Shown: positions 48,229-50,498 of the stretch, one piece after another
Layout of the letters: each line of letters starts with the position of its first letter
How positions within the stretch are numbered: the first letter of the stretch is position 1
Assembly (NCBI GenBank): GCA_011523615.1
Contig: WTGJ01000004.1
Coordinates: forward strand, 1,369-51,866
DNA: 50,498 nt
Origin: Chloroflexota bacterium
Lineage (GTDB): Bacteria; Chloroflexota; Anaerolineae; Aggregatilineales; Phototrophicaceae
Direction: 5' to 3'
Program-made: the position numbers and the translations under genes
The notes under the pieces: generated by a model
The model's database searches: none
Told to the model about the DNA's origin: nothing
What the model saw: only the letters and a program-made list of their open reading frames with translations

Positions 48229-49479
48229 CTAGGCTTGGCTGGAGGCGGGCCGGGCGCGCAAACCCACTTTTCTCTCCTGTCGATCGGACCAGCGCATCAG
48301 GTAGTAACTCGGCGCCAGCATGGCCGCGAAGATGACCGCACTCACATAAAATGGCAGCCGTGGATGCGCGTCGAACAATGCTCCGGCAAACGCGGTGCCG
48401 AAAATGGTCGCCAGGCTACCCGCCGATTGCACCCAGCCGAGGATGGCGCCGCGCACTTCATCGCGCTCGGATCGCGTCGCCATGGCTTGCAAAGCCGGCG
48501 CCATCGTGCCTACCCCCAGGGCGGAGAAGATGCCGGAGATGGGGGCGAAGAGAAAACCGGTGCCGCTGCGCATGGTCGCCATCACCATCACCCCGATCCC
48601 ACGGCCGATCAAACCGCCGAAGGCCAATCTTCCTACCGCGGTCCGCCGCAGCAACCAGGGCAGAATCCACCACTGCGTCACCACCTGCCCCACGCCGAAG
48701 GACATGTAGACGACGCCGATGCCCAAAGTAATTTGCGCGACGGGAAAGCCAGCGAACATCACCGCCTCGCCATAAAGCGCAAAGGTGGAGAGCATCAATC
48801 CCAGGTTGATGGTGGTGCAAAAAGTCACCGTCAGGATGAAAAAGAGCGGCAGGTTGCGCAACACTTCGCCGCTGCTGATTTTCGAGCGGGCCTGGGCCGC
48901 TGCGTCCAACTTGCCGGATGGCAAGACCGTCTCGGCCATCGTGAAATGAATCACCGGTACGGTCAGAAAAGCGACCAGGGCCGCCAGCAAGAACGGAATC
49001 GTTGCGCCGAAAAAAGCAGCCAGCGTGCTGCCCAGCAAAGGGCCCAGCACCAGACCCAAACCCATCGCGCCCCAGACTTTGCCCAGGGCTTCGGCGTGTT
49101 TGTTGGGAGGGGTGATATCCGTCATGTAGGCCTGGGCCACGATCAGGTTGCCACCGGTGATGCCATCCAGAATCCGGGCGAAAAAGAGCAGCTCGACGCT
49201 ACCCGCCACCGCGATCAAGGCGAAACTGACCGCGGTGCCGAATTGGCTGATCAGCAACACGCGCAACCGGCCATAGCGGTCACTCCAGCGGCCCAGCAGC
49301 GGGCCAGCCAGGAATTGCGCGCCGAAGAAGATGGAGATCAAGAAGGCGATGACGGTCGAAGAGACGGCGAAACGTTCTTTGGCGTAGAGCGGGAGGATGG
49401 GCACCACCATCATCGTGCCCGAAAACTGGACAAAGACGATCAGGAGGACGGTCCAATAGGCACGGCGGTGGCCGCTCAT
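48229..49479 (-). CDS. MFS efflux transporter (TetA-like DHA1 family)
   Basis: This 416-residue protein has 12 predicted membrane spans. The loop 2-3 motif A is GRWSDRYGRLRVLL, and motif C-like GLGLVLGPLLGSTLA lies in span 5, placing it with drug:H+ antiporters. VVPILPLYA in span 1 is typical of the TetA-type group. The exported compound is unknown. TATGCT (49491-49486) ends 6 nt before the ATG without a Shine-Dalgarno sequence, another leaderless candidate. It is separated by 63 bp from the merB-like gene upstream. Confidence 0.88.
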   Translation of the reverse strand: MSGHRRAYWTVLLIVFVQFSGTMMVVPILPLYAKERFAVSSTVIAFLISIFFGAQFLAGPLLGRWSDRYGRLRVLLISQFGTAVSFALIAVAGSVELLFFARILDGITGGNLIVAQAYMTDITPPNKHAEALGKVWGAMGLGLVLGPLLGSTLAAFFGATIPFLLAALVAFLTVPVIHFTMAETVLPSGKLDAAAQARSKISSGEVLRNLPLFFILTVTFCTTINLGLMLSTFALYGEAVMFAGFPVAQITLGIGVVYMSFGVGQVVTQWWILPWLLRRTAVGRLAFGGLIGRGIGVMVMATMRSGTGFLFAPISGIFSALGVGTMAPALQAMATRSERDEVRGAILGWVQSAGSLATIFGTAFAGALFDAHPRLPFYVSAVIFAAMLAPSYYLMRWSDRQERKVGLRARPASSQA

Positions 49480-49542: not shown

Positions 49543-50250
49543 TCAATCCGGCGAGGAAAACCGCCAGAATTCGCCCGTCAGCCCCACTGCCGCGAAGATG
49601 GCTTCGGCTTGCTCCGCGCTGTGGCCCCGATATGCAGCAGATAATCGGCCGCGATACCAGAGTTGAGCCAGCTGCCAAACGGAAGCGATCGGCACACACT
49701 GGCCGCGCGGCTCGGCCGTCCTTGCCACCCATATGGCCACTTCCTCTTCCGACCGGAAGAGCAACATCGTCGCTCAGGTATGGATCAGGTCGTCATACCA
49801 GCGGCGCACCGGCAGGGCGAAATGAACGAGCCAGGATTTTGGCGCGCGCAACTCACCCTTCTCGACCGCGAAATGCAGCTCTTCGCCTGTATTGGGGTGC
49901 TTCGCCACTATGCGCGCATCTTGCGCCAGCATCGCGCTGACCCCCAGCGCATCCCAGGCGCAATTGGCCCAGAGGCAGCATCCGCCAGAATGCCGTCCGT
50001 CGGATGAGAGAACGGCGTAATCAGTGGGTTGCCCGGCCAGTGGGTTGGCCATGCGAATGGCCCCTGCTTCATCCAGCAAGATCTGATGCGCCTCGTGCAG
50101 CCGCTGGAAAGCCGCCTGCAAGTCCCCTTCTGTGCTGCCCAAATGGTGCGCCATTTCACCTGCAGTCGGTGCTCGGCCCAGTGCGACGAAATGCGCGTAT
50201 ATCTCTGCCCGCAGGAGCCAATCGCGCTCCGTCAACATCGTCGCCGTCAT
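49543..50250 (-). CDS. merB: Organomercurial lyase (MerB)-like protein, predicted selenoprotein
   Basis: Two adjacent frames join in the same register through one TGA (49776-49774), giving 235 residues with the TGA as codon 159. Upstream are a winged-helix-like N-terminal region (about 10-65) and ANCAWDALG with C97 and D100, equivalent to MerB C96 and D99. The TGA falls in LIHT-x-ATMLLFRSEE, where MerB has its second catalytic cysteine (C159). C-terminal homology continues past the TGA (IWVARTAEPRGQ...WQLAQLWY). A SECIS-like hairpin follows. Start ATG 50250 overlaps the stop of the preceding gene; GTG 50253 is an alternative. A simple nonsense mutation is the other explanation. Confidence 0.8.
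49744..49761 (-). promoter_or_regulatory. Bacterial SECIS-like stem-loop downstream of the in-frame TGA
   Basis: Starting 12 nt after the TGA, CTCTTCC pairs perfectly with GGAAGAG around a four-base GGTC loop (49754-49751). The GGUC loop matches that of the E. coli fdhF SECIS, where G and U contact SelB, and the distance from the stop codon fits bacterial SECIS elements. Confidence 0.75.
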
Positions 50251-50498
50251 CACCCGCTCGTTTCCGTCAGGATTTCTTCGTAGAGGGCGTGATATTTTGC
50301 CGCGACGCCCGCCCAGCTGTAGCGCTCCGCCATCAAGTTCCGCGCCGCCGCCGCCCGTTTCGCGCTGGCTGCCGGGTCTTCCAGACAGGCCAGAGTCTGC
50401 TCGATGAGGGAATCGTCGCTTGTCGCATCGTTCTCGGCGAGGAGGAGCTGTTCGCCATCGACCGCTTCGGGGATTCCCGCCACGCTGAGCGGCGTTGC
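50250..50498 (-). CDS. Glycosyltransferase family 4 (partial, C-terminal end)
   Basis: The last 82 residues of a GT-B glycosyltransferase enter from the right edge. TPLSVAGIPEAVDGEQLLLAEND contains the family 4 donor-sugar contact (GIPE) and the usual acidic position, followed by LIEQTLACLEDPAASAKRAAAARNLMAERYSW and the terminal helix. The donor and acceptor cannot be inferred. Its stop overlaps the merB-like start (TGATG), implying co-translation. Confidence 0.85.
   Translation of the reverse strand, partial: ATPLSVAGIPEAVDGEQLLLAENDATSDDSLIEQTLACLEDPAASAKRAAAARNLMAERYSWAGVAAKYHALYEEILTETSG

What the first reader, a model, noticed from the sequence alone, without database searches (positions are those of the whole stretch)
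49543..50250. MerB-like protein with an in-frame TGA at the catalytic cysteine: predicted selenocysteine organomercurial lyase homologue
Seen: a single in-frame TGA (49776-49774) splits a MerB homologue at LIHT-x-ATMLLFRSEE, codon 159 of the chosen frame, with similarity continuing on both sides and C97/D100 intact. The family has its second catalytic cysteine at this place (C159). Substitution of Cys by Sec at a catalytic thiol is the classic pattern of bacterial selenoproteins. Selenium binds mercury more tightly than sulfur, so a Cys/Sec pair could change C-Hg cleavage or bind another metal(loid). No other mer genes are nearby, so the real substrate may differ. I cannot recall with certainty whether such a MerB form has been described.
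Basis: partly seen in the sequence, partly recalled or inferred. Interest (0 to 1): 0.93.

Follow-up and report, generated by a model that had tools for sequence, protein, structure and literature searches.

The report
Selenium version of mercury-lyase enzyme MerB
This bacterial gene belongs to the family of the mercury-detoxifying enzyme MerB but has a 'stop' codon exactly where MerB has a catalytic cysteine; the codon is predicted to be read as the rare selenium amino acid selenocysteine, and because related genes in many bacteria share it, a selenium-based enzyme that would cut carbon-metal bonds has likely been widely overlooked.

Summary
In detail: ORF, in-frame TGA (49776-49774, codon 159), Cys97 and Asp100 are as described. 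The TGA is almost certainly a selenocysteine codon. Of the 80 best relatives kept from a scan of named genomes, 76 have TGA and 4 TAG at that site, none a sense codon. All four TAG genomes (Geodermatophilus, Modestobacter, two Blastococcus) carry a tRNA-Sec with anticodon CUA; 7 of 8 TGA genomes tested carry the UCA form. The window's genome has selA, selB, selC and selD, and its selD has an in-frame TGA too. A covarying stem-loop with a GGUC loop 19 nt after the codon meets the four constraints of the published bacterial SECIS model. Codons on both sides are under purifying selection, and Cys forms lie among Sec forms in the tree. The predicted fold is MerB's. A MerB-like selenoprotein, SaoL, is already known, so this is a new variant of a known kind: it is far below the SaoL and MerB model cut-offs, has no sao or mer family among ten window proteins scanned, and by record titles spans seven phyla. 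A sister clade has TGA at both catalytic-cysteine positions. That it cleaves carbon-metal bonds, and which metal, is inferred and untested.

The parts
49543..50250 (-). ORF of the predicted selenoprotein: MerB-family protein, 235 residues with Sec at 159
49774..49776 (-). in-frame TGA, codon 159, predicted Sec codon, at the position of MerB Cys159
   Evidence: 76 TGA + 4 TAG of 80 relatives at this site; aligned with a Cys of MerB2 5c17
49744..49761 (-). predicted SECIS upper stem-loop CTCTTCC-GGTC-GGAAGAG; loop (49751-49754) begins 19 nt after the TGA
   Evidence: 5 of 7 pairs with changes on both sides over 61 sequences; codon choice; fold -15.3 kcal/mol over 42 nt; constraints in PMC13188914
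49960..49962 (-). Cys97 codon (MerB Cys96 position)
   Evidence: Cys in 81 of 81; aligned with Cys of MerB2
49951..49953 (-). Asp100 codon (MerB Asp99 position)
   Evidence: Asp in 81 of 81
49543..49545 (-). terminal TGA; the GGTC stem-loop sequence does not follow it
   Evidence: sequence
50250..50252 (-). TGA stop of the upstream gene, overlapping the ATG start (TGATG), so probably translationally coupled; upstream gene perhaps a glycosyltransferase (name by inspection only)
   Evidence: sequence; its 82-residue tail in the window gave no Pfam match
48229..49479 (-). next gene downstream on the same strand, major facilitator superfamily transporter, 63 nt after the terminal TGA
   Evidence: PF07690 156.6 bits; no NCBIfam cut-off reached

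Best explanation
The window gene is a MerB-family gene whose in-frame UGA stands at the position of MerB's catalytic Cys159 and is predicted to be read as selenocysteine, giving a protein that likely cleaves carbon-mercury or other carbon-metal bonds with a Sec159/Cys97/Asp100 triad. Shown by sequence: the stop codon is conserved at this one position, is UAG where the tRNA-Sec anticodon is CUA, is followed by a covarying stem-loop, and alternates with Cys. Inferred: SelB with Sec-tRNA reads the UGA with help of the stem-loop. Inferred from MerB: Cys97 thiolate and Sec159 selenolate clamp the metal of an R-metal substrate, Asp100 delivers a proton to the carbon, RH leaves, and the metal held between Se and S is passed to cellular thiols. 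Selenium's lower pKa and higher affinity for soft metals (general chemistry, recalled) would favour capture of trace substrate. As no mer family was found among the window proteins scanned and no protein of the genome reached the MerA cut-off, the product metal is probably handed to thiols or efflux and not reduced by MerA; the substrate could be an organometal other than organomercury.
For: Stop codon at the same site in 80 of 80 kept relatives, C97 and D100 in 81 of 81. TAG form in 4 genomes, all 4 with CTA-anticodon tRNA-Sec; 7 of 8 TGA genomes tested with TCA tRNA-Sec. Own genome: selA 555.8 bits, selB 390.2, selC 73.6, selD 368.8 with an in-frame TGA after NCAG. Stem-loop: 5 of 7 pairs with changes on both sides, 88.3% of cells paired against 46.6-64.4% when slid; Arg codon CGG 65 of 72 (14.7 expected from the rest of the same genes), Ser codon TCG 72 of 72 (20.5 expected) (relatedness not corrected). 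dN/dS under 1 before and after the codon in 16 of 16 chosen pairs. Cys forms fall among Sec forms in the tree. MerB fold. MerB residues Cys96/Asp99/Cys159: passages of PMC4525700 and PMC8261052.
Against: No direct proof of Sec (no 75Se, no peptide). Folding with synonymous shuffles is weak: 12.6% of shuffles fold as well for the window; 19 of 80 relatives under 5%. Seven relatives (L045-L049, L053, L072) have a GTGA loop and L045 folds differently; L098 also departs in the loop. Pair shuffles do not allow for relatedness, and a structure taken from the consensus tends to beat slid versions (the tool's own caution). Class-wide, 33 of 37 TGA genomes have selC against 277 of 359 others, Fisher p 0.098; 4 of the 37 lack it. 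One TGA genome tested (G070) has only a tRNA-Leu as its best tRNA-Sec match. Activity: no mer or sao family among 10 window proteins, no protein over the MerA cut-off, and placement in the rpsB-tsf-pyrH region in part of the family does not point to a mercury operon.
Confidence: 0.72

Rival explanations
1. It is a selenoprotein with the MerB fold, but not a carbon-metal lyase: the Sec/Cys pair works as a metal(loid) carrier, sensor or redox centre.
For: No mer or sao family among 10 window proteins scanned; no protein over the MerA cut-off in the genome; placement in the rpsB-tsf-pyrH region in part of the family; the N-terminal domain resembles winged-helix regulators such as LexA and MntR, though the whole chain matches MerB better.
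Against: Cys97 and the proton-donating Asp100 are intact in 81 of 81; whole-chain match to MerB and MerB2.
Confidence: 0.25
2. The TGA is an ordinary stop: a 158-residue protein is made, or the gene is a pseudogene.
For: Public gene calls end here in 114 of 120 listed homologues; a decayed relative of the TGA form does exist on a Rubrobacter plasmid.
Against: Purifying selection after the codon in 16 of 16 chosen pairs; recurrence in 80 of 80; TAG/CUA switch; Cys forms read straight through.
Confidence: 0.03
3. UGA is read as Trp, Cys or another amino acid by suppression or code change, not as Sec.
For: Formally possible without protein data.
Against: The gene itself ends in TGA; TAG stands in place of TGA in four genomes whose tRNA-Sec has a CUA anticodon; the residue is Cys in every long sense-codon homologue that I looked at; stem-loop of bacterial SECIS type.
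Confidence: 0.02

Closest known systems
SaoL (NCBIfam NF040728), MerB-like selenoprotein of the Sec-assisted organometallic (SAO) system
   Same: MerB-related protein predicted to contain Sec; listed with motif CU and one Sec in the table of PMC13188914 (passage)
   Different: 43.1 bits against a cut-off of 140 for the window protein; motif here is TU, not CU; no sao family among 10 window proteins; 0 of 321 genomes of the phylum sampled have a SaoL over cut-off. Haft and Gwadz 2023, the describing paper, is not held and was not read
MerB, organomercurial lyase (R831b type; PDB 3f0o, 3f2f)
   Different: Cys159 replaced by predicted Sec; His at the Cys117 position (by the alignment to MerB2); 42.6 bits against cut-off 193; no mer family among 10 window proteins
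MerB2 (PDB 5c17)
   Different: MerB2 has Ser, this family Asp, at position 99; predicted Sec in place of Cys
'Organic mercuric lyase MerB2' / 'Alkylmercury lyase MerB-like protein' in tables of predicted selenoproteins (PMC7435645, PMC9312934)
   Same: earlier predictions that a MerB-family selenoprotein exists (passages)
   Different: the passages seen give no family beyond pfam03243; the 2026 review puts the entry under SaoL. Whether any listed member is of this clade could not be checked
UAG-Sec proteins of Geodermatophilaceae
   Same: same codon and CUA tRNA-Sec as in the four TAG relatives here
   Different: reported ones are formate dehydrogenase, UGSC proteins and AhpC (passage of PMC5330540); no MerB relative is named in that passage

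Membership tests
Bacterial selenoprotein gene | Sec machinery (selA, selB, selC, selD) in the genome | tested here: met
   each with a match over its cut-off
Bacterial selenoprotein gene | SECIS: loop 3-9 nt, upper stem 4-16 bp, G in the first two loop positions, 16-37 nt from UGA to loop, MFE <= -7.5 kcal/mol | tested here: met
   loop 4 (GGUC), stem 7, spacing 19, MFE -15.3; constraints from PMC13188914 passage
Bacterial selenoprotein gene | homologues with Cys at the site | tested here: met
   6 of 120 listed database homologues are long and have Cys; L020
Bacterial selenoprotein gene | Sec shown in the protein | not testable with these tools
   needs 75Se labelling or mass spectrometry
MerB (canonical organomercurial lyase) | Cys96 and Asp99 | tested here: met
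   Cys97 aligned with the Cys of MerB2; Asp100 three residues on, in 81 of 81
MerB (canonical organomercurial lyase) | Cys159 | tested here: not met
   TGA at the site
MerB (canonical organomercurial lyase) | Cys117 | tested here: not met
   His118 of the window protein is at that place (alignment); PMC8261052 calls MerB forms without it 117alt
MerB (canonical organomercurial lyase) | NCBIfam curated cut-off | tested here: not met
   42.6 of 193 and 33.8 of 200 bits
MerB fold family (Pfam PF03243) | Pfam gathering score and fold | tested here: met
MerB (canonical organomercurial lyase) | cleaves C-Hg bonds | not testable with these tools
   enzyme assay needed
SaoL | NCBIfam NF040728 cut-off 140 bits | tested here: not met
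   43.1 bits; six relatives 32.5-48.5 bits
SaoL | CU motif (PMC13188914 table) | tested here: not met
   TU: Thr158-Sec159
SaoL | SAO operon neighbours | tested here: inconclusive
   no sao family at E <= 1e-10 among 10 window ORFs scanned, at least one of them probably a spurious antisense ORF; only the downstream side lies in the window

The most novel reading that the evidence does not exclude
A large, unrecognised branch of MerB is built on selenium: a Sec/Cys/Asp carbon-metal lyase found in seven phyla by record title, not tied to mer operons, written with UGA in most hosts and UAG in Geodermatophilaceae, with a sister clade in which both metal-gripping positions are Sec, a diselenolate lyase. 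It would be a hidden demethylation route for methylmercury or another organometal in the environment, missed because gene calls stop at the codon and MerB surveys screen for Cys159.
Probability: 0.4. Interest if true: 0.9.

Novelty: new variant of a known kind. Interest (0 to 1): 0.76.

Why it matters
A large MerB survey screened homologues for Cys159 (PMC8261052, passages) and gene calls stop at the codon (114 of 120 listed homologues), so this branch would be missed when microbial organomercury degradation is counted. The UGA/UAG switch in step with the tRNA-Sec anticodon is a natural experiment that marks the site as a Sec codon, and because the four TAG carriers are named strains, direct proof is practical. 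The double-TGA relatives raise the question of what chemistry would need two selenolates on one metal.

Tried and rejected
Rejected: ordinary stop, pseudogene, sequencing error, code change (see rivals). Rejected: filing it as SaoL or as canonical MerB; curated cut-offs not met. The MerA search hit (316.6 of 454.45 bits) was rejected as MerA: it looks like a dihydrolipoyl dehydrogenase and lacks a C-terminal CC (by inspection).

Weak or negative: co-occurrence of the TGA form with tRNA-Sec in the class, p 0.098, because tRNA-Sec is common there (310 of 396); of the 37 TGA genomes I checked the position of the TGA in 32, and the two double-TGA genomes were counted among the others. Minimum-energy test with synonymous shuffles, weak. 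Rfam gathering scan of the window, no match. Viral contigs, no relative. Neighbour analysis used a crude ORF picker that often takes antisense ORFs in G+C-rich loci, so absence of mer genes beside the members in other genomes was not established; only 10 window ORFs were scanned with NCBIfam. For the first TGA of the double-TGA clade the folding evidence is modest: z -0.48 for L161; a consensus hairpin with GU in a 5-nt loop, which is not the best fold of each of the six sequences in both stretches tried.

Papers: Haft and Gwadz 2023 and Haft and Tolstoy 2025 are not held; Mukai et al. 2016 was not opened and is known here only through PMC5330540. I saw no UAG or double-Sec MerB relative in the titles and abstract starts listed by searches, nor in the passages opened; this covers the held library only. 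The word MerB does not occur in the main texts of PMC2398784, PMC12013277, PMC5029168.

Rows dropped: from the tree (quick method, with long-branch warnings) 23 of the 80 loci were left out to save time, one TAG locus among them; the dN/dS pairs were 16 close pairs that I chose, first 20 codons after the stop left out; the covariation alignment holds 61 of 81 sequences; the structure alignment holds 48 and no TAG row.

Full report
OBSERVATION. Minus strand 50250->49543 reads MTATMLTERDW...WANCAWDALG...WYDDLIHT-U-ATMLLFRSEEE...FSSPD, with one in-frame TGA at codon 159 (49776-49774) and a terminal TGA at 49545-49543. Pfam MerB matches across the TGA, residues 90-199, 2.2e-24. NCBIfam gives SaoL 43.1 bits (cut-off 140), MerB 42.6 (cut-off 193) and 33.8 (cut-off 200). 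The ATG overlaps the stop of the upstream gene (TGATG); a major facilitator superfamily transporter gene follows on the same strand.

RELATIVES. Among 61 genomes (the own one and 60 of its family and order), 6 have a match: 5 with the TGA, the own genome included, and one, G042, with Cys. The scan of named GTDB genomes found 275 relatives among 301 candidate stretches and kept the best 80. By record title these are Chloroflexota 56, Actinomycetota 9, Gemmatimonadota 7, Acidobacteriota 3, Thermomicrobiota 2, Myxococcota 1, Verrucomicrobiota 1 and one unassigned; the last two named phyla rest on one assembly each. At the aligned codon 76 have TGA, 4 TAG, none a sense codon; Cys97 and Asp100 are kept in 81 of 81 with the window. 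In 43 loci held from the class and phylum surveys, which include the window's own gene and several of the first set, 42 have the TGA and one (G042) is the Cys form; 40 of the 42 contain TTCCGGTCGG just after it. Of 2474 database homologues 120 were listed; 114 of these end at the residue before the codon and 6 are long; these six carry Cys.

WHY IT IS A SEC CODON. (1) Machinery: selB 390.2 bits, tRNA-Sec 73.6 bits with anticodon TCA, selA 555.8 bits and selD 368.8 bits in the window's genome. The selD has an in-frame TGA after NCAG, so the genome probably uses Sec in a second protein. (2) Codon-anticodon switch: the four TAG loci lie in Geodermatophilus saharensis, Modestobacter excelsi, Blastococcus saxobsidens and B. 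capsensis. All four genomes carry a tRNA that scores 65-67 bits as tRNA-Sec and has anticodon CTA; seven of eight TGA genomes tested have TCA, and in the eighth (G070, from locus L087) the best match, 47.7 bits, is a tRNA-Leu. UAG-Sec in this family of actinobacteria is known for formate dehydrogenase, UGSC proteins and AhpC (PMC5330540 passage). (3) Stem-loop: CTCTTCC-GGTC-GGAAGAG, with the loop 19 nt after the codon, folds at -15.3 kcal/mol and meets the loop and stem, G-position, spacing and energy constraints printed in PMC13188914. Over 61 sequences 5 of 7 pairs show changes on both sides; 88.3% of cells pair, against 46.6-64.4% when one side is slid, and 0 of 500 shuffles reach the covariation score (shuffles do not allow for relatedness). 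Codon choice is skewed: Arg CGG 65 of 72 (14.7 expected), Ser TCG 72 of 72 (20.5 expected), Phe TTC 77 of 79 (54.2 expected). L052, L065, L146 and L149 keep the stem through a C-G to U-A change. Against this, synonymous shuffles of the window fold as well in 12.6% of draws and only 19 of 80 relatives fall under 5%, and seven relatives have a GTGA loop, one of which, L045, was folded and takes another shape. (4) Selection: in 16 of 16 chosen pairs dN/dS is below 1 before the codon (0.07-0.51) and after it (0.04-0.52). (5) Cys/Sec exchange: in a tree of 82 rows Cys forms fall among Sec forms; the Cys label needs 5 changes, of which starred branches force 3. (6) Co-occurrence in the class is weak evidence: 33 of 37 TGA genomes with tRNA-Sec, 277 of 359 others, p 0.098. 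The best Cys form there, G042, has no tRNA-Sec at E <= 1e-8 in a genome 98% complete.

DOUBLE-TGA SISTER CLADE. Two loci from the class survey (L161, L162) and four more genes (L174; L176, L192 and L196 in one genome) have TGA at both catalytic positions, with Gly-[Leu/Met/Phe]-[Glu/Asp] after the first; a seventh gene of the clade, L175, has Cys at the first and TGA at the second. The seven form one side of a branch with support 100 (SH-aLRT, quick tree). The CTTCCGGTCGG sequence follows the second TGA in all seven. After the first, a consensus hairpin has a 5-nt loop with GU, and L175, with Cys, differs there, but support is modest. P0128 and P0129 (from L161 and L162) reach no NCBIfam cut-off, and MbdU, a listed double selenoprotein (PMC13188914 table), is not among their matches.

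MECHANISM. Shown: codon, stem-loop, machinery, conservation; fold by prediction. Inferred: Sec159 and Cys97 hold the metal, Asp100 protonates the carbon, and the freed metal goes to cellular thiols. Not known: substrate. No protein of the genome reaches the MerA cut-off; the assembly is 94% complete. In a Chloroflexota group the gene sits in the rpsB-tsf-pyrH region: rpsB cluster in 25 loci, tsf in 19, pyrH in 21, rpsB with tsf or pyrH in 22 of 81 loci examined. In 8 others it lies near an HMG-CoA reductase gene. This suggests a stand-alone, perhaps constitutive role and not an induced mercury operon.

PRIOR ART. A MerB-like selenoprotein is known: SaoL of the SAO system (PMC13188914 passages), and reviews list 'Organic mercuric lyase MerB2' (PMC7435645) and an 'Alkylmercury lyase MerB-like protein' (PMC9312934). 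The window gene fails the SaoL model and motif. I therefore rate it a new variant of a known kind. The TAG and double-TGA forms were not seen in the listings or passages searched, but three key papers were not read.

Noticed in passing
L161, L162, L174, L175, L176, L192, L196: Sister clade of MerB-like genes with in-frame TGA at both catalytic-cysteine positions (6 genes in 4 genomes) and one gene with Cys at the first position; one genome (G561) has three copies.
   Followed up: partly
L063, L086, L091, L100 with L107, L108, L110, L111: UAG-coded MerB-like genes in Geodermatophilaceae with CTA-anticodon tRNA-Sec; ARAGORN names these tRNAs Pyl because of the anticodon, while RF01852 scores them 65-67 bits.
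   Followed up: yes
L020, L236, L237: A Cys-form clade (including plasmids of Paraburkholderia sp. PGU19 and Sphingomonas panacis) has Cys in place of Asp100 (CAWC, CMWC, CLWC).
   Followed up: no
L235, 3941-4407: Rubrobacter radiotolerans plasmid: the annotated 89-residue 'merB' ends at a TGA at the Sec site; similarity beyond it lies in another frame, so this copy looks decayed.
   Followed up: no
22 of 81 loci, Chloroflexota (among L023-L055 and L072): The gene sits in the rpsB-tsf-pyrH region, after elongation factor Ts and before UMP kinase where both were picked up (15 loci).
   Followed up: partly
L041, L044 (same genes as L017, L018), end of gene; also L050: A TGA 74 codons after the Sec codon; in L017 and L018 another TGA follows two codons later (U-P-U), most simply the ordinary stop and a back-up stop; a second Sec is not excluded.
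   Followed up: no
G000:C19:123494-124426 (L234): The window genome's selD has an in-frame TGA (NCAG-U-ASKIGPEDL): a predicted Sec-containing SelD.
   Followed up: yes
L045-L049, L053, L072: Subgroup with TTCCGTGAGGA in place of TTCCGGTCGGA after the TGA: a different loop (GTGA) that still begins with GU.
   Followed up: partly
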